NCBI RefSeq assembly: GCF_002088945.1
Contig: NZ_NCSU01000007.1
Coordinates: forward strand, 186,001-250,000
Direction: 5' to 3'
Source of the DNA: Henriciella pelagia
Lineage (GTDB): Bacteria; Pseudomonadota; Alphaproteobacteria; Caulobacterales; Hyphomonadaceae
Length of the DNA: 64,000 bases
The number at the start of each line of letters is the position of its first letter. Position 1 is the first letter of the stretch. Shown in pieces: positions 12,599 to 34,471 of this stretch. The notes beneath the pieces are model-generated. The model did not search any database. It had not been told where the DNA came from and was given only the letters and a program-made list of their open reading frames with translations. The position numbers and the translations under genes were made by a program.

Positions 12599-15529
12599 TT
12601 AGCGCCCCATCGCCTCGCGAATGAGGTCTGACTCGGCCTCGGCCACGATCGCCTCGATGACACTTTCGGAATTGACGCGTTCCTTGCCGACTTCAAGCAT
12701 GACGGGCACGGCGAAAGGGCTGATCCGGTCCAGTTTCTGATGGTCTATCTTGCCGCGAATACGCGTCAGCATGTCGGACAGGCGGCGGATGTCGAGGAGG
12801 CCCGTCGCAGCGTCCTGGCGCGCGGCCTGTAGCAGGATGTGATCCGGCTCATGGCTGCGCAGCACGTCATAGATGAGGTCGGTTGAAAACGTGATCTGGC
12901 GGCCGGTCTTTTCCTTGCCAGGCAGGCGGCGCGCAATGATGCCGGAGATCTGCGCGGCCTGCGCAAAAGTGCGCTTCATCAGCGGGCTCTCATCCAGCCA
13001 TTCCTCGAGATCGTCGCCCAGCATGTCCGGATGGAACAGCGCGTCCATGTCGATGCTGGACATGTCGTCCATTGCCCAGACGGCCATGGCGTATTCCGAC
13101 GCCACAAAGCCCAATGGCTTCGCCCCTGCCCGCTCGAGGCGTCGGGTGAGCAGCATGCCGAGCGTCTGGTGCGCAAGACGGCCTTCAAACGGGTAGGTAA
13201 CGAGGTAGTGCCGGTCCGCGCGCGGGAAAGTCTCGACGAGAAGATGGTCCGGCGGCGGGATTTCGGACTTTTCCTTCTGGATTTCGAACCATTCACGGAC
13301 CTGGTCGGGCAGGCCCTGCCACTGAGCAGGGTCGTGGATCATGTGGCGGACGCGGTCAGCAAGGAAGGTCGTCAGCGGGAACTTGCCGCCATTATAGGTC
13401 GGGATGGCGGGCTTGTCGGTCTGGGCGCGCGTGACCAGCACGTCGAGCTCGGAGATGCCTATGAAGCGCAGGATTTCGCCCGCGAACAAGAACGTGTCGC
13501 CGGGCGTCAGGGTCGAGATGAAGTATTCCTCGATCTCACCCAGCTTGCGACCGGGGCGGATGGCCCGCTGTTCTTGCGCTGCGCTCTTGCCTCCCCCGCC
13601 TGCGGGGGAGGTGGGCGGCGAAGCCGCTCGGAGGGGGGAGCCTCGGGACGCAGCGCCTGATTTTTTGCCACTGCCGTGGCCTTCTCCGCCTCCAATCGAT
13701 CCACTGGATCGATTGGTCTGCTGTGCAGACTGGCTTCGAAGCCCCCTCCGCCCTGCGGGCCCCTCCCCCACTTGTGGGGGAGGATTGGTCGCACTGCGTT
13801 TGCCAACGAAATTCGCCAGCCTGACATTCAGCAGCTGCGCTTCGACGATGGCGCCGACATTCATGCGATGCTGCTGCGCATCGCGGGCGGTGCGCACGCG
13901 CCAGACGCCGTCCTGCATCCGAACAATCCGCTTGAAGCGGTCATAGGTCTTGAGCGCATAGCCGCCGGTCGCGACGAGGTCGACGACACGCTCATAGGAT
14001 TCCCAGTCGAGGGCTTCATAGGGCGCGGCGCGGCGAATTTCGTCGAAGAGCGGTTCCAGCTCGAAGCCCACCCCGCAGGCCCGGCCCATAATGTGCTGCG
14101 CGAGGACATCGAGCGCGCCCTGCCGCATCGGTTCGCCGTCGATCTCTCCGGCTTCGACGGCGGCTTCGGCAGCGCGGCATTCGAGGACTTCGAACCGGTT
14201 GGTTGGCACCAGAAGCGCGCGGGAGGCTTCATCCATGCGGTGATTGGCGCGGCCGATGCGCTGGATGAGGCGGGCGGCGCCCTTGGGCGCGCCCATCTGG
14301 ATGACGAGATCAACCCCGCCCCAGTCAATGCCGAGGTCGAGTGTGGAGGTACAGACAACGCCTTTCAGCGTGCCTTTTGCCATGGCCGCTTCGACCTTGC
14401 GGCGCTGCTCAACGGCGAGCGAGCCATGGTGAAGCGCAATGGGCAGGGCGTCTTCATTGGCCCGCCAGAGCTCCTGAAACAGAAGCTCGGCCTGGCTGCG
14501 CGTATTGACGAAGACGAGCGCCATTTCGGCGGCTTTTATGGCTTCGTAGACTTCCGGGATGGCGAAGCGGCCAGAATGGCCGGACCAGGGGATGCGCTCA
14601 CGCGAGACAAGAATGTCGATATTCGCGCCGACGCCGCCTTCGGCGCGGATGATGTGGACGCCGCGCCCCCTCCGTCCCACAGCCTCTCGGCTGTGGGCCA
14701 CCTCCCCCACATGCGTGGGGGAGGCAAGGACTTCGTCGGTCGTTTGGGCTTTTGCCTCCACCCGCTTGCGGGGGGAGGTGCCCGAAGGGCGGAGGGGGGA
14801 AGCGGCAGTCGCTGTGCTTTGTGGCTCCCCCCTCCGAGCGGCTCCGCCGCCCACCTCCCCCAGGTCTGGGGGAGGCAAGGGACCTGGAGCTTTCCGCACA
14901 TCCAGCCAGTCTGCCAGCAGGCCCGGATCGCGCACGGTGGCCGAGAGGCCAATGAAGCGGCACGTGGGTGCCCATTCAGCGAGGGTGGCGAGGCCAAGCG
15001 AGAGCAGGTCACCGCGCTTGGAGGCCGCGATGGCGTGAACCTCGTCGATGATGACGCATCGGAGGTCCGAAAAGAATTCGTCTGCATGGTCGGACGCAAT
15101 GAACAGGGCGAGTTGTTCGGGCGTGGTGAGCAGGATATCCGGCGGATTGGTGCGCTGGCGCTGGCGCTTCGATTGCGGCGTGTCGCCCGTGCGGGTCTCG
15201 ATGCGGATGTCGAGGCCCATTTCGGCAACGGGGGTATTGAGGTTGCGCTCCACATCGGTGGCGAGGGCTTTCAGCGGAGAGATGTAGAGCGTGTGCAGGG
15301 CCGGGCGTCCGGAGTTCGACTTCGGCTTCCGCTCCAGTTCAATCAGGCTTGCCAGGAACCCCGCCAGCGTCTTGCCGCCGCCCGTGGGGGCGATGAGGAG
15401 GGCACTGTCACCCGCCAGCGCCGTCTCTGTCAGCGCGAGCTGGTGTGGACGCGGCGCCCACCCCCGCCCCTTGAACCAGTCCTCGAACCGGTCCGGTAGC
15501 TGGAATGGGAGGGCAGACGCGTCTGGCAT
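12599..15529 (-). CDS. Ligase-associated DEXH-box DNA helicase (Lhr-like) with two in-frame repeat insertions
   Basis: This 976-aa superfamily 2 helicase has Walker A APTGGGKT (about residue 48), DEVHAI (about 166), LSATV motif III, then a second RecA domain (LVFVNTRSQAELL, STLDLGIDWGGV, QRIGRANHR) and the C-terminal Lhr-type domains (LGEIEEYFISTLTPGDTFLF, PFEGRLAHQTLG). It acts in DNA repair with the MBL exonuclease and ATP-dependent ligase encoded at 17356 and 19985. Two stretches do not belong to the family: residues about 214-288 (linker between RecA domains) and about 580-647 (before LGEIEEYF). Both are Pro/Gly/Arg/Ser-rich and correspond exactly to palindromic repeat clusters in the DNA. 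Without them the protein would be near 835 aa. The frame remains open throughout, so it may still be functional. Confidence 0.93.
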   Translation of the reverse strand: MPDASALPFQLPDRFEDWFKGRGWAPRPHQLALTETALAGDSALLIAPTGGGKTLAGFLASLIELERKPKSNSGRPALHTLYISPLKALATDVERNLNTPVAEMGLDIRIETRTGDTPQSKRQRQRTNPPDILLTTPEQLALFIASDHADEFFSDLRCVIIDEVHAIAASKRGDLLSLGLATLAEWAPTCRFIGLSATVRDPGLLADWLDVRKAPGPLPPPDLGEVGGGAARRGEPQSTATAASPLRPSGTSPRKRVEAKAQTTDEVLASPTHVGEVAHSREAVGRRGRGVHIIRAEGGVGANIDILVSRERIPWSGHSGRFAIPEVYEAIKAAEMALVFVNTRSQAELLFQELWRANEDALPIALHHGSLAVEQRRKVEAAMAKGTLKGVVCTSTLDLGIDWGGVDLVIQMGAPKGAARLIQRIGRANHRMDEASRALLVPTNRFEVLECRAAEAAVEAGEIDGEPMRQGALDVLAQHIMGRACGVGFELEPLFDEIRRAAPYEALDWESYERVVDLVATGGYALKTYDRFKRIVRMQDGVWRVRTARDAQQHRMNVGAIVEAQLLNVRLANFVGKRSATNPPPQVGEGPAGRRGLRSQSAQQTNRSSGSIGGGEGHGSGKKSGAASRGSPLRAASPPTSPAGGGGKSAAQEQRAIRPGRKLGEIEEYFISTLTPGDTFLFAGEILRFIGISELDVLVTRAQTDKPAIPTYNGGKFPLTTFLADRVRHMIHDPAQWQGLPDQVREWFEIQKEKSEIPPPDHLLVETFPRADRHYLVTYPFEGRLAHQTLGMLLTRRLERAGAKPLGFVASEYAMAVWAMDDMSSIDMDALFHPDMLGDDLEEWLDESPLMKRTFAQAAQISGIIARRLPGKEKTGRQITFSTDLIYDVLRSHEPDHILLQAARQDAATGLLDIRRLSDMLTRIRGKIDHQKLDRISPFAVPVMLEVGKERVNSESVIEAIVAEAESDLIREAMGR
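13588..13642 (-). repeat. Class A palindromic element 1 (reverse), inside helicase gene
   Basis: On the + strand the order is GCCTCCCCC-GCCTGC-GGGGGAGGTG, then GGCGGCGAAGCC, then CGGAGGGGGGAG, which is the reverse of the class A consensus CCCCTCCG...CACCTCCCCC...GGGGGAGG. It has two nested hairpins. It is translated as part of helicase residues about 630-647 and lies about 98 bp from element 2, in opposite orientation. Confidence 0.85.
13741..13785 (+). repeat. Class A palindromic element 2 (forward), inside helicase gene
   Basis: GCCCCCTCCG-CCCTGCGGGC-CCCTCCCCC-ACTTGT-GGGGGAGG, in forward orientation. The 98 bp between elements 1 and 2 hold a separate perfect inverted repeat, CCAATCGATCC-ACT-GGATCGATTGG (about 13694-13718), not seen elsewhere in the window. 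Together they add about 67 codons to the helicase gene. Confidence 0.85.
14665..14728 (+). repeat. Class A palindromic element 3 (forward), inside helicase gene
   Basis: GCCCCCTCCG, then the hairpin TCCCACAGC-CTCTCG-GCTGTGGG, then CCACCTCCCCC-ACATGC-GTGGGGGAGGCAAGG. It is one of three class A copies in alternating orientation that make up the first in-frame insertion in the helicase gene. Confidence 0.88.
14753..14803 (-). repeat. Class A palindromic element 4 (reverse), inside helicase gene
   Basis: GCCTCCACCCGCTTGCGGGG then GGAGGTGCCCGAAGGGCGGA, then a G-run; this is the reverse orientation of class A. It follows element 3 after about 24 bp, the same spacing and order (forward, then reverse) as elements 6 and 7 at 31.7 kb. 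Confidence 0.87.
14823..14880 (+). repeat. Class A palindromic element 5 (forward), inside helicase gene
   Basis: GGCTCCCCCCTCCGAGCGGC, then TCCGCCGCCCACCTCCCCCA, GGTCTGGGGGAGGCAAGG. Forward orientation, about 20 bp beyond element 4, completing the forward-reverse-forward cluster. The helicase reading frame passes through all three copies without a stop. Confidence 0.88.
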
Positions 15530-30460: not shown

Positions 30461-31666
30461 ATGACTGAAGCTTACATTTATGACGCCGTGCGCACCCCGC
30501 GCGGCAAGGGCAAGAGCTCCGGCTCTCTGCACGAGATCACCGCCCTCTCGCTCGCGACGCAGGCCCTGCAGGCCATTCGCGACCGCAACGAGCTCGATAC
30601 GAGCAATGTTGACGACGTCGTGCTCGGCTGTGTGTCGCCCGTTGGCGAGCAGGGCGCAGACATTGCCCGTATCGCGGTGCTGAATGCCGACTATGCCGAA
30701 ACCACCGCAGGCGTGCAGATCGACCGCTTCTGCGCCTCCGGCCTCGAGGCCTGCAACATGGCCGCCGCAAAAGTCATGACCGGCGAGGCTGACATGGCCA
30801 TCGGCGGCGGTGTCGAGAGCATGTCCCGCGTGCCCATGGGCGCAGCTGGCGGTGCGTGGTCGGCTGACCCGCAAGTCGCCCTCAAGACCTATTTCGCCCC
30901 GCAGGGCATCGGCGCGGACACGATTGCCACCAAATGGGGCTTTTCGCGCGATGATGTCGACGCTTACGCTGTCGAATCCCAGAAGCGCGCCGCCAAGGCC
31001 TGGGAAGAAGGCCGCTTCAAGAATTCCATCGTGCCCGTGAAAGACCAGATGGGCGCAATCATCCTCGACCATGACGAACATATGCGTCCGGACGCGTCCA
31101 TGCAGTCGCTTGCCTCGCTGAACCCGTCCTTCGCAGGCATGGGCGGCATGGGCTTCGATGAAGTCATCAAGCAGCGCTATCCGGAGCTGGAAGCCATCGA
31201 TCACGTGCACCATGCCGGCAACTCGTCCGGCATCGTCGACGGCGCATCGGCTGTTCTCTTTGGCTCGAAGGAAATGGGCGAGAAGCTCGGCCTGAAGCCG
31301 CGCGCCCGCATCAAGTCCATGGCGTCCATCGGTTCCGAGCCCGGCATTATGCTGACCGGCCCCACGGCCGTGTCCCGCAAGGCGCTGATGAAAGCCGGCA
31401 TGGACGTCGACGATATCGACATCTACGAGCTGAACGAAGCGTTCGCTTCGGTGCCGATGCTGATGATGCACCTGCTGAACATCCCACATGAGAAAATGAA
31501 CGTGAATGGCGGCGCCATCGCCTTTGGTCACCCGCTGGGTGCGACCGGCGGCATGCTGCTCGGCACCATGGTGGACGAGCTTGAGCGCTCCGACAAGGAG
31601 ACCGCGCTTGTGACGCTGTGCGTCGGCGCCGGCATGGGCACCGCCACGATCATTGAGCGGGTCTAG
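30461..31666 (+). CDS. fadA: Acetyl-CoA acyltransferase (thiolase, FadA-like)
   Basis: This 401-aa thiolase has the nucleophilic cysteine at residue 91 ([10 protein letters not shown]), the active-site block [16 protein letters not shown] and the C-terminal CVGAGMGTA. The [10 protein letters not shown] segment and MMLTGPTA-type text are degradative-thiolase features, so it most likely does the last step of beta-oxidation, releasing acetyl-CoA. AAGGAG stands before the ATG at 30461. It is separated from its partner fadJ by the DUF559 gene and three class A palindromic elements, whereas fadA and fadJ are usually adjacent. Confidence 0.93.
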
Positions 31667-31677
31667 TTTGGCTATCA

Positions 31678-31731
31678 CCCCCCTCCGACCCGCTTTGCGG
31701 GCCACCTCCCCCAAGACTGGGGGAGGCAAGG
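31678..31731 (+). repeat. Class A palindromic element 6 (forward)
   Basis: CCCCCCTCCG, then the hairpin ACCCGC-TTT-GCGGGC, then CACCTCCCCC-AAGACT-GGGGGAGGCAAGG. It begins 12 bases after the thiolase stop. Forward orientation, followed after about 24 bp by element 7 in reverse, the same pair structure as elements 3 and 4 in the helicase gene. Confidence 0.88.
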
Positions 31732-31754
31732 CGTTGCGTCTGAAGCTGCCTTCT

Positions 31755-31804
31755 TGCCTCCACCGCTCAGCGGGGGAGGTGGCGGCGAAGCCGGCGGAGG
31801 GGGC
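31755..31804 (-). repeat. Class A palindromic element 7 (reverse), providing a ribosome binding site
   Basis: TTGCCTCCACCGCTCAGCGG, then GGGAGGTGGCGGCGAAGCCG and GCGGAGGGGGC. Its terminal GGAGGGGG lies five bases before the TTG start codon of the DUF559 gene at 31808, so the repeat supplies the Shine-Dalgarno of that gene. Confidence 0.87.
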
Positions 31805-31807
31805 ACC

Positions 31808-32170
31808 TTGAAAGCCAACCCGGTCATTAGAAGACGCGCTCAAGCACTGAGAAGTGAACTCACAGATGCAGAACGAATTCTCTGGTCGAAACTCAAAGGC
31901 AGGCAGGTCAATGGCTGGCAATTCAGGAACCAGCATCCAGTCGGGCCCTACATTGCCGACTTCGCATGCGTCAAAGCTCGCCTCATCATCGAAGTGGACG
32001 GAGCTTCACACACCGAGGACGCACAGCTTGCTCACGATGAACGCCGTTCGGCTTTCCTCAGAAAGCAAGGCTGGCACGTCCACCGCGTCTGGAACATCGA
32101 CATCTACAACAACCTCAACGCCGTCCTCGACGGCATTCACGCACTCTTGCCCCCCTCAACCCAACGCTGA
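31808..32170 (+). CDS. DUF559 endonuclease-like protein bounded by palindromic elements
   Basis: This 120-aa protein matches DUF559, a Vsr-like PD-(D/E)xK nuclease fold: LRSELTDAERILWSKLKGRQ at the N-terminus, then WQFRNQHPVGPYIADFACV, LIIEVDGASH (the IADF and IEVDG acidic pair) and RRSAFLRKQGWHVHRVWNID. TTG at 31808 is the start by homology and because the repeat-derived GGAGGGGG precedes it; the frame is open into the repeat to 31754. The C-terminal residues after ALL (PPSTQR) and the stop are encoded by the next repeat. It interrupts a beta-oxidation operon, between thiolase and fadJ. Catalytic activity is inferred. Confidence 0.85.
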   Translation: MKANPVIRRRAQALRSELTDAERILWSKLKGRQVNGWQFRNQHPVGPYIADFACVKARLIIEVDGASHTEDAQLAHDERRSAFLRKQGWHVHRVWNIDIYNNLNAVLDGIHALLPPSTQR

Positions 32171-32212
32171 CGCGCTGGCCCACCTCCCCCGCTTTGCGGC
32201 AGGGGCAAAAGG
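32148..32212 (+). repeat. Class A palindromic element 8 (forward, degenerate), encoding the DUF559 C-terminus
   Basis: GCCCCCCTCAACCCAACGCT, then GACGCGCTGGCCCACCTCCC, CCGCTTTGCGGCAGGGGCAA. It is forward, with more mismatches than other copies. The DUF559 stop codon (TGA, 32168-32170) lies inside it. Together with element 7 it places the DUF559 gene between inverted copies whose C/G-run ends face the gene. Confidence 0.78.
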
Positions 32213-32239
32213 GGAAGCATATTTAGGGAGACCACTCAA

Positions 32240-34471
32240 ATGAACCTCGAAACATTCAAATTCGACATTGATGGCGACGGCATTGCGCACGCCCAGTTCG
32301 ACGTGCCGGGACGCAGCATGAATACGCTGACCGCCAAGGCGGTCGCCGACATCATCGCGATCTCCAAGGAGGTCGCCGAGAACGACAAGATCAAGGGTCT
32401 CGTCATCTCGTCTGGCAAGCCATCCGGCTTCTGCGCAGGCGCAGACCTGGGCGAGATGGGCGACCGTGCCGGCGCGGCAGACACCAGCAACCTCAGCGAG
32501 GACGAAAAGCTGAAAGCCCGCTTCAATCAGGGCTTCTCGCTCAACAAGACACTTCGCGAGCTGGAAACCTGCGGCAAGCCGGTCGCCTGCGCGCTCAATG
32601 GTCTCGCCCTGGGCGGCGGCCTCGAAGTGGCGCTGGCCTGTCATTACCGCGTCGCGGCCAATGACAATCCAAAGCAGCAATTCGGCCTGCCGGAAGCCAA
32701 GATCGGCCTTCTGCCGGGCGCAGGTGGCACGCAGCGTCTGCCGCGCCTTGTCGGCGTCCAGGCAGCCCTGCCGCTCATCCTTCAGGGCACGAGCTTCTCT
32801 GCCGAGGAAGGCAAGAGCATGGGCGTGATCAACGAACTCGCGCCCGGCGCAGAGGTCGTCGAGAAAGCCAAGGCCTGGGTGAAAGCCAATCCGACGGCGA
32901 AAGCCCCGTGGGACGAGAAGGGCTTCAAGGTCCCAGGCGGCGTGGTTCACAAGAGCCCGGGCGCCGGCCAGGTCGCGACCATGTCGAACATGATGCTGGC
33001 GGCCAAGACCTATGGCAATTATCCGGCCCAGAAGAACATCCTCTCCTGCATCTATGAAGGCATCCAGGTGCCGATTGATGCGGGTCTTCGCATTGAGACG
33101 CGCTACTTCATCAACACCCAGTCGCGCCCGGAAGCGAAAGCGATGATCCGCTCACTCTTCCTGTCGACGCAGGCCCTTTCGAAGGGCGGCAACCGTCCGG
33201 AAGGCTACCCGAAGACCGAGTTCAAGAAGATCGCCGTCATCGGCGCCGGCCTGATGGGTGCCGGCATCGCCTATGTCCAGGCCAAGGCTGGCATTCCGAC
33301 CGTGCTCGTCGACATCTCCAAGGAGAATGCCGAGAAGGGCAAGGATTATTCCCGCCGCCTCGTCGAGAAGGACATCTCGCGCGGCAAGTCGACAAAGGAA
33401 AAGGGCGACAAGCTGCTCGACCTGATCACGACGACCGACAATTATGATGACTTCAAGGGCGCGGACCTCGTTATCGAGGCCGTGTTCGAGAACCCGGAGC
33501 TGAAGGCCAAGATCACCGAGCAGGCCGAGGCCGTGCTGGGCGAGGATGCAGTCTTCGGGTCCAACACCTCGACCCTGCCAATCACCGGTCTTGCCAAGGC
33601 GTCGAAGCGCCCTGAGAACTTCATCGGCATCCACTTCTTCTCCCCAGTGGAGCGGATGGGTCTCGTCGAGATCATCTCTGGCGAAGAAACCTCCGAGGAG
33701 ACGCTGGCCAAGGCGATCGATTACGTCCTCGCGATCCGCAAGACGCCAATCGCCGTGAATGACAGCCGCGGTTTCTATACGTCCCGCTGCTTCGGCACCT
33801 ATACGCAGGAAGGCATGCAGATGCTGGCCGAAGGCATCAAGCCGGCCATCATCGAGAATGTCGGACGCCAGTCCGGCATGCCGATGGGACCGCTGGAAGT
33901 CTCCGACTCGGTCGGTCTCGACACCGCCCTCAAGGTTGGCCGTCAGATGGCCCAGGCCGCGGGCATGGACTATAATGGCAATGAGCTGGGCCAGATGATG
34001 GCCTGGCTGGTCGAGGATCAGGGCCGCGTTGGCCGCAAGGCCGGCAAGGGCTTCTACGACTATAATGAGAAGGGCAAGCCTGCACGGCTCTGGCCCGACC
34101 TCAACAACCGTATCGACGTGAAGGTCGATGAGTGCCCGCCGGAGCTGAAGCAGCACCTGAAGAACCGCTTCCTTGTCCGTCAGGCCATCGAAGTCGCCCG
34201 CTGTTTCGAGGAGGGCGTCATCACCGATGCACGCGACGCCGATATCGGCTCGATCCTCGCCTGGGGCTTTGCGCCTTATACGGGCGGCTGCTGCTCCTAT
34301 GTCGACCTGATCTGGGGCATCGGCCCGTTCGTGGAAGAAGCTGAAAAGCTCGCCGCAAAATATGGTGAGCGCTTCGCCCCACCTGCCCTGCTCAAGGACA
34401 TGGCCGCCAAGGGCGAAGGTTTCTATGACCGCTTCCCGCCAGGCGGTGTGAAAGCCAAGGTCGCGGCATAA
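32240..34471 (+). CDS. fadJ: Bifunctional enoyl-CoA hydratase / 3-hydroxyacyl-CoA dehydrogenase
   Basis: This 743-aa protein has an N-terminal crotonase domain ([35 protein letters not shown] near residue 120, [17 protein letters not shown]) and, from about residue 328, the 3-hydroxyacyl-CoA dehydrogenase domains: NAD-binding [39 protein letters not shown] and the C-terminal domain with [13 protein letters not shown]. It catalyses steps two and three of beta-oxidation, passing product to the thiolase at 30461. GGGAG stands before the ATG. The gene is followed by a strong terminator, closing the operon. Confidence 0.94.

What the first reader, a model, noticed from the sequence alone, without database searches (positions are those of the whole stretch)
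31678..32212. DUF559 nuclease-like gene between inverted palindromic elements inside a beta-oxidation operon
The gene lies between thiolase and fadJ, which are normally adjacent. It is preceded by a forward/reverse class A pair and followed by a forward copy, so inverted copies bound it with their C/G-run ends facing the gene, much as REP sequences bound RAYT transposases. DUF559 is a Vsr/PD-(D/E)xK-like fold, so a nuclease that mobilises the palindromes in cis and trans is a plausible and, as far as I know, undescribed system.
Basis: partly seen in the sequence, partly recalled or inferred. Interest (0 to 1): 0.85.

Follow-up and report, generated by a model that had tools for sequence, protein, structure and literature searches.

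The report
DUF559 nuclease genes bracketed by palindromes
Genes for a small, little-studied bacterial nuclease often sit, in several kinds of bacteria, between short palindromic DNA repeats that are also scattered through the same genomes, which suggests an undescribed partnership between a nuclease and the repeats it may help to spread.

Summary
The gene (window 31808-32170, Pfam DUF559) and its palindromes are real. The upstream pair (31678-31803) is a strong REPIN-like doublet; the downstream copy is degenerate. The association is general: 52 of 73 testable DUF559 loci (80 retrieved, several phyla) have inverted repeats within 300 bp on both sides, against 4 of 703 control ORFs in the same loci and 0 of 29 toxin loci. 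Across 200 related genomes palindrome number follows DUF559 presence, also in a within-genus permutation. One relative holds the same unit (doublet, DUF559, doublet) at two unrelated loci, 98.8% identical inside, with edges at the palindrome tails. Doublets also occur alone, at sites empty in relatives, and in frame inside a helicase gene of this window.

Against the strong form: here the gene looks old and shared by three species; orientation is not fixed; a further 19 loci gave only 9 positives; 17 of 72 DUF559-free genomes hold at least 10 palindromes. No cleavage was tested, so mobilisation by the nuclease is inferred.

It works like REP/RAYT but is not one: no HUH match, no GTAG tail. GIY-YIG nuclease genes show a like arrangement with another palindrome class. 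My searches found no paper describing either.

The parts
30461..31666 (+). thiolase gene upstream
   Evidence: Thiolase_N, Thiolase_C
31678..31803 (.). upstream palindrome doublet (REPIN-like: tail-hairpin-spacer-hairpin-tail)
   Evidence: sequence; single-strand DNA fold z -5.4; other own-genome copies 72-91% identical over the parts matched
31678..31726 (+). class A palindrome, forward copy
   Evidence: fold z -3.7
31757..31803 (-). class A palindrome, reverse copy, C/G-run tail towards the gene
   Evidence: fold z -3.1
31808..32170 (+). DUF559 nuclease gene, likely TTG start at 31808 (start chosen by eye)
   Evidence: PF04480 E 3.9e-33; R15, E22, Q42, D51, E62, D64, H68 among the invariant columns of 44 sequences; PDB relative 3hrl_A E 2e-20
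32150..32205 (+). downstream class A palindrome, degenerate, overlaps the stop codon
   Evidence: core CCACCTCCCCC at 32180; no significant fold; the copy after the orthologous gene in L028 looks better preserved (by eye)
32240..34471 (+). fadJ-type 3-hydroxyacyl-CoA dehydrogenase gene downstream
14667..14877 (.). class A palindromes in frame in an Lhr-type helicase ORF (site 1)
   Evidence: helicase by Pfam; no such insert in L345, the only same-genus relative resolved at this site
13591..13785 (.). class A palindromes in frame in the same helicase ORF (site 2)
   Evidence: no such insert in 14 of 14 same-genus relatives resolved at this site

Best explanation
DUF559 and the palindromes form one co-propagating system that works like REP/RAYT but uses an unrelated nuclease. 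The basic unit is a doublet, about 105-130 bp in those I measured: a C-run tail (CCCCTCACCC or CCCCCTCCG type), one or two GC hairpins, a spacer, then the mirror image. Doublets spread as non-autonomous units. The DUF559 gene travels or persists between two doublets. Proposed mechanism (inferred): the PD-(D/E)xK-like protein recognises the hairpin plus tail, probably as extruded or single-stranded DNA, and cuts at the tail edge. That either releases and inserts doublets, or copies the gene into resident doublets by break repair. Shown: bracketing, co-occurrence, solo doublets with defined ends, filled and empty orthologous sites, one duplicated composite unit, conserved candidate catalytic residues. 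Inferred: recognition, cleavage, and which of the two copying routes is used. In the window the element looks like an old, decaying member at a site shared by three species.
For: Flank inverted repeats: 52 of 73 testable DUF559 loci against 4 of 703 control ORFs; in the order 23 of 30 against 0 of 29 for ParE. C-rich hairpins on both sides: 76 of 129 loci against 1 of 370 control windows at fixed offsets (hairpin rule set after seeing the data; 3 pairs of the 129 share identical stretches, one being the same locus twice). Copy number: 128 DUF559+ relatives median 17 hairpins, 72 DUF559- median 3, within-genus permutation p <= 5e-5. A 672-bp alignment between two loci of G147, 98.8% identical, ending at the tails. 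The 119-bp doublet full length and alone at 4 places in G147 and 2 in G194. In-frame palindrome inserts in a helicase gene that relatives hold without them. E. coli: 37 sampled chromosomes with ycjD (a DUF559 gene) have median 22 places matching the query, 22 without have median 9. A DUF559 protein of Caulobacter causes an SOS response in vivo in a methylation mutant (PMC12907096, passages).
Against: A further set of 20 loci, partly picked from palindrome-poor genomes, gave only 9 of 19 usable loci at score 34 or more. 17 of 72 DUF559-free relatives hold at least 10 hairpins, and 19 of 128 DUF559+ genomes hold fewer than 3 of the searched class; one of the four genera tested alone was not significant (p 0.16, n 7). 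G194 holds full-length doublets but no detected DUF559. At this locus the gene looks vertically inherited. No clear target-site duplication was found. In the G147 pair all 7 internal differences lie in the doublets or at one junction and none in about 509 bp of core, which may point to copying of the gene into resident doublets rather than doublet transposition. The Caulobacter paper reads DUF559 as a mismatch-repair nuclease. The E. coli comparison is confounded by phylogroup. Loci are not phylogenetically independent.
Confidence: 0.6

Rival explanations
1. Homing-like model: the palindromes are the target, not the cargo. DUF559 cuts dispersed doublets and break repair copies its gene into them, leaving a doublet on each side. 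Doublets spread by other means.
For: Composite doublet-DUF559-doublet with the doublets as direct repeats; core identical while doublets differ in the G147 pair; doublets persist in genomes without DUF559; at the L146 site G194 holds a solo doublet where G147 holds the composite.
Against: Doublet number follows DUF559 presence, also within genera, which a pure target model does not predict; the doublet at the L146 site in G194 has a different spacer, so it is not an allele of the doublets in G147.
Confidence: 0.25
2. DUF559 is a Vsr-like repair nuclease kept for the host; palindromes merely collect around it because it sits between genes.
For: Caulobacter VsrA, a DUF559 protein, is tied to cytosine methylation and damage (PMC12907096 passages); residence at the thiolase-fadJ site in three species.
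Against: 703 control ORFs in the same loci and 29 ParE loci are almost never so bracketed. The left and right repeats match each other better than repeats from other loci (score 50 or more in 38 of 73 against 13 of 431 cross-locus pairs). Vsr model TIGR00632 scores 19.8 bits, cut-off 97.85.
Confidence: 0.1
3. The palindromes are moved by a RAYT or another transposase elsewhere in the genome and DUF559 is a passenger inside a palindrome-rich element.
For: REP doublets of another class are held to be moved by RAYTs (PMC3733652 passages; PMC8266576 seen in a search listing only); several palindrome classes can share a site.
Against: Tails are C-runs, not GTAG (sequence). GIY-YIG genes are bracketed by a different class and by this one in 0 of 28 loci, so the pairing looks specific. 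RAYT genes were not searched for in these genomes.
Confidence: 0.05

Closest known systems
REP/RAYT systems (REPtrons) and REPINs
   Same: Small nuclease gene between inverted palindromes; dispersed non-autonomous copies, often as inverted doublets; mostly between genes, some inside genes (known side from PMC3733652 passages and recall).
   Different: Enzyme is PD-(D/E)xK-like DUF559, not an HUH tyrosine transposase; tail is a C-run, not GTAG; doublets here are themselves repeated on both sides of the gene in several cases.
CGTC-class REPs / Rickettsia palindromic elements
   Same: Dispersed palindromes organised as dimers; insertions inside genes (PMC3733652 passages).
   Different: Different sequence class; PMC3733652 states that CGTC repeats apparently lack a dedicated transposase. 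Here some GIY-YIG genes sit between CGTC-type palindromes.
Vsr and Caulobacter VsrA
   Same: Same broad fold by the paper's account; VsrA carries DUF559 (PMC12907096 passages).
   Different: Studied as mismatch repair tied to a methyltransferase; 'palindrom' has 0 occurrences in that paper's main text.
Homing endonuclease genes
   Same: Small nuclease gene that may copy itself into its own target (recalled).
   Different: Target would be a dispersed palindrome rather than a conserved gene; cleavage not shown.

Membership tests
DUF559 (PF04480) | Match over Pfam cut-off | tested here: met
   114 bits, cut-off 20.6
DUF559 (PF04480) | Conserved candidate active-site residues of a PD-(D/E)xK nuclease | tested here: met
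   E22, Q42, D51, E62, D64, H68 invariant in 44 sequences; their catalytic role is recalled, not tested; no structure model was obtained
REP/RAYT (REPtron) | HUH Y1 tyrosine transposase next to the palindromes | tested here: not met
   Pfam matches of the protein are DUF559 and REase_MTES_1575 only
REP/RAYT (REPtron) | GTAG tail on the palindrome | tested here: not met
   Tails are CCCCTCACCC / CCCCCTCCG type (by eye)
REP/RAYT (REPtron) | Nuclease gene bounded by inverted palindromes | tested here: met
   52 of 73 loci; 76 of 129 loci by the hairpin rule; 9 of 19 in a further set
REP/RAYT (REPtron) | Dispersed non-autonomous copies, often doublets | tested here: met
REP/RAYT (REPtron) | Enzyme shown to bind and cut the palindrome | not testable with these tools
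   bench work
Vsr mismatch endonuclease | Match to the Vsr model over its cut-off | tested here: not met
   TIGR00632 19.8 bits, cut-off 97.85
Vsr mismatch endonuclease | Linked cytosine methyltransferase | not tested
   the two neighbours of the window gene are thiolase and fadJ-type; nothing wider was surveyed
Insertion sequence | Terminal inverted repeats with a target-site duplication | tested here: inconclusive
   Defined ends found; no clear duplication; a possible diverged 4-bp one at the L190 site (read by eye)
Homing endonuclease gene | Gene interrupts its own target and is absent from the intact target allele | tested here: inconclusive
   L146 site: composite in G147, solo doublet of other spacer in G194, another doublet in G143, CGTC-type doublet in G158, no insert in G178, G174, G186

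The most novel reading that the evidence does not exclude
Bacteria hold several unrelated nuclease families, each paired with its own superfamily of dispersed palindromes. RAYT with GTAG repeats is the known pair; DUF559 with C-run palindromes and GIY-YIG with CGTC-type palindromes are two more. The nucleases drive the spread of much of the REP-like DNA that so far has no known mover.
Probability: 0.45. Interest if true: 0.93.

Novelty: new variant of a known kind. Interest (0 to 1): 0.85.

Why it matters
REP-like palindromes are common repeats of bacterial genomes, and for some classes no mover is known; PMC3733652 (passages) says so for the CGTC class. A nuclease gene that is bracketed by one such class in several phyla gives a concrete candidate. 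E. coli K-12 carries a member, ycjD, and E. coli genomes carry copies of its palindrome class, so the idea can be tested in a standard laboratory strain. It would also give a role to DUF559, which Pfam lists as of unknown function.

Tried and rejected
Passive clustering in intergenic DNA: rejected as the main cause by ParE loci (0 of 29) and control ORFs (4 of 703). E. coli ycjD as a clean empty/filled pair: not usable, because the two ycjD-lacking strains that I opened carry an efflux operon there. The tkt-ypfG site in E. coli: two of seven strains compared hold this palindrome class where five hold a GTAG-type REP (named by eye), so it is a replacement and not an empty site. Own-genome copies as signs of recent movement: the other copies are only 72-91% identical over the parts matched. 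Defence-system reading: only weak PADLOC matches, best 20.7 bits for the window protein, and NCBIfam anti-phage models far below cut-off. Structure prediction: never obtained.

Limits of the counts: one search tests 73 of 80 retrieved loci (7 lacked flank). By title, loci of Omnitrophota, Spirochaetes, Bacteroidetes and two Deltaproteobacteria were below 34. One search gives 30 of 32 DUF559, 28 of 30 GIY-YIG and 29 of 30 ParE loci, skipping short flanks or match spans. The order-level DUF559 and GIY-YIG loci are best-scoring ones, one per genome. One search printed 20 loci; one (L250) was set up wrongly because its contig ends, leaving 19. Among the 129 loci, three pairs share an identical 150-base stretch, one of them the same locus from two collections. 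The 17 palindrome-rich DUF559-free genomes may include missed or divergent DUF559 genes. One search resolved site 2 in the own genome and 14 same-genus relatives, site 1 only in own, L345 and L360. On re-checking I lowered the claim for G067: its DUF559 lies before a fadJ-type gene, but the contig ends before the other neighbour; its label in the tree assumed more.

Full report
What is in the window. The gene at 31808-32170 matches DUF559 with 114 bits and lies between thiolase and a fadJ-type gene. Upstream is an inverted pair of palindromes at 31678-31803 that folds far better than shuffles as single-stranded DNA (z -5.4); the downstream copy at about 32150-32205 is decayed (z 0.07). The genome (3.44 Mb) has three DUF559 matches. 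By eye all three lie between palindromes: two with the class of the window, the third with a related C-rich class.

The association is general. A single scan of species-level genomes gave 80 DUF559 loci from many groups. Taking 300 bp on each side and aligning the left flank with the reverse complement of the right, 52 of 73 testable loci score 34 or more, against 4 of 703 control ORFs in the same loci; at 50 or more it is 38 of 73 against 1 of 703. Left flanks paired with right flanks of other loci score 50 or more in 13 of 431 and 34 or more in 73 of 431, so part of the signal is shared class and part is local. By record title the positive loci include Pseudomonadota, Desulfuromonadales, Melainabacteria-type, Bipolaricaulota, Zixibacteria and Marinimicrobia; loci titled Omnitrophota, Spirochaetes and Bacteroidetes were below 34. 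Many are MAGs, so single labels may be wrong. A Deinococcus plasmid copy (L167) shows palindromes on both sides by eye. In the order of the window 23 of 30 loci score 34 or more, against 0 of 29 for ParE toxin genes. A further set, partly chosen from palindrome-poor genomes, gave 9 of 19. A stricter hairpin test, whose rule I set after seeing flanks, finds C-rich 8-bp stems on both sides at 76 of 129 loci and 1 of 370 control windows.

Genomes. Among 200 relatives, the own genome included, 128 have DUF559. The broad hairpin pattern gives 6023 forward hits and 113 for the reversed control. DUF559+ genomes have a median of 17, DUF559- genomes 3; at least 10 copies in 85 of 128 against 17 of 72; within-genus permutation p <= 5e-5. 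Tested alone, three of the four genera shown there reach p < 0.05 and one (n 7) does not. For the strict class in the own genus: 13 genomes with both, 3 with DUF559 only, 1 with hairpin only, 12 with neither (Fisher 1.2e-4). The exceptions count against a simple dependence: 17 DUF559-free genomes are rich, 19 DUF559+ genomes are poor. Some of the poor ones (genus g14) carry variant palindromes that the pattern misses; of five g14 loci printed, three score 34 or more on the flank test.

Mobility. In G147 two stretches of 672 bp at unrelated loci are 98.8% identical, with no like identity outside. The edges fall at CCCCTCATCC and GGGTGAGGGG. The unit is doublet, DUF559, doublet, the doublets being direct repeats. 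The 119-bp doublet also occurs full length and alone at 4 places in G147 and 2 in G194, which has no detected DUF559. Orthologous sites in that genus are filled in some species and lack the doublet in others (for example the L190 site: G147 and G194 filled, G158 not); at one site the doublet lies in opposite orientation in two species; at another a doublet of another class begins at the same base. The two units of G147 differ at 7 internal positions, all in the doublets or at one junction, none in about 509 bp of core. That pattern would also fit copying of the gene into resident doublets, which is why I keep a homing-like rival. I saw no clear target-site duplication.

History of the window copy. 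DUF559s at the thiolase-fadJ site of G000, G022 and G013 form one clade (98/90; the bootstrap had not settled). In G067, another genus, a DUF559 outside that clade lies before a fadJ-type gene (Enoyl-CoA hydratase domain), but the contig ends before the other neighbour. So the gene looks old here, and the region may have been hit more than once. The L001 gene of the own genome lies between a MoxR-type ATPase and a DUF58 gene, as does the DUF559 of G012 and, by eye, that of G025; these three fall in one group (100/98) that also holds two genes at other places. In G013 the palindrome tails point away from the gene, in the window towards it (by eye), so the flanks seem to turn over while the gene stays. 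Overall 26 of 37 resolved pairs have tails facing the gene.

A gene caught with inserts. Class A palindromes sit in frame at two places inside a 976-aa ORF of this window that Pfam reads as an Lhr-type DEAD helicase. At site 2 the 14 same-genus orthologs resolved have no such insert; at site 1 only one same-genus relative could be resolved and it has none; G041, from another family, has a palindromic insert of its own at site 1.

E. coli. K-12 ycjD is annotated as a DUF559 gene between sapF and fabI. In a megablast search of its region, 3330 of 5426 genomes cover at least 80% of the 1351-base query. The palindrome downstream of ycjD finds a median of 18 places per genome that has any, 5375 of 5426 genomes. 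In an even-step sample of 60 records, 37 with ycjD have a median of 22 matching places and 22 without have 9, p 2e-8 (one row, a 231-kb record, dropped). This is confounded by phylogroup.

A second nuclease. Small GIY-YIG genes of the same genomes also lie between inverted repeats (16 of 28 score 34 or more), but of another class: the C-run hairpin is at 19 of 30 DUF559 and 0 of 28 GIY-YIG loci; the CGTC-type motif on both sides at 0 of 30 and 7 of 28. I looked because I recalled such flanks. PMC3733652 (passages) says CGTC repeats apparently lack a dedicated transposase.

What is known. Nine searches (DUF559 with palindromic, DUF559 alone, COG2852 with repeat, REPIN/RAYT with endonuclease, Vsr with REP, GIY-YIG with REP, and three broader ones) showed me no paper on a link between DUF559 or GIY-YIG and dispersed palindromes. 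I judged by the titles and abstract starts listed, and opened passages of only three papers (PMC12907096, PMC3733652, PMC12306157); subscription papers and bioRxiv are outside the library. PMC12907096 (passages) shows that a Caulobacter DUF559 protein, VsrA, is responsible for SOS induction when ScmA methylation is absent and proposes mismatch repair; the authors say its nucleolytic activity is still to be clarified.

Verdict. The bracketing is well supported; that DUF559 moves or copies the palindromes is my best inference at 0.6. The system works like REP/RAYT and fails its membership tests on enzyme and tail.

Noticed in passing
L252-L281 (relatives), e.g. L258, L264, L274, L277: Small GIY-YIG nuclease genes lie between CGTC-type or related palindromes: 16 of 28 score 34 or more on the flank test, 0 of 28 with C-run hairpins. 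A possible mover for the CGTC REPs said to lack one.
   Followed up: partly
window 12599-15529 (-): An Lhr-type helicase ORF carries two in-frame class A palindrome insertions; G041 (L360) has a palindromic insert of its own at the first site.
   Followed up: yes
L003 1195-1327 and 1939-2072: A stretch that reads by eye as the end of an SDR-like gene is duplicated (83.6%) on both sides of the third DUF559 gene of the own genome.
   Followed up: no
L250, L241, L239, L090; window 30461-34471: DUF559 genes recur beside beta-oxidation genes: before a fadJ-type gene in G067, before thiolase in G174 (and by eye G178), and between a 3-hydroxyacyl-CoA dehydrogenase and a thiolase in Variovorax. Not tested against chance.
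   Followed up: partly
L023 and L030 (G026, G011), thiolase-fadJ gap: Two relatives hold a different palindrome pair, without DUF559, in the same gap; 19 of 30 hold what looks by eye like a small glycine-rich ORF.
   Followed up: no
L201, L371-L376 (E. coli tkt-ypfG gap): Two of seven E. coli strains compared carry the ycjD-class palindrome where the other five carry what looks like a GTAG-type REP at the same place.
   Followed up: partly
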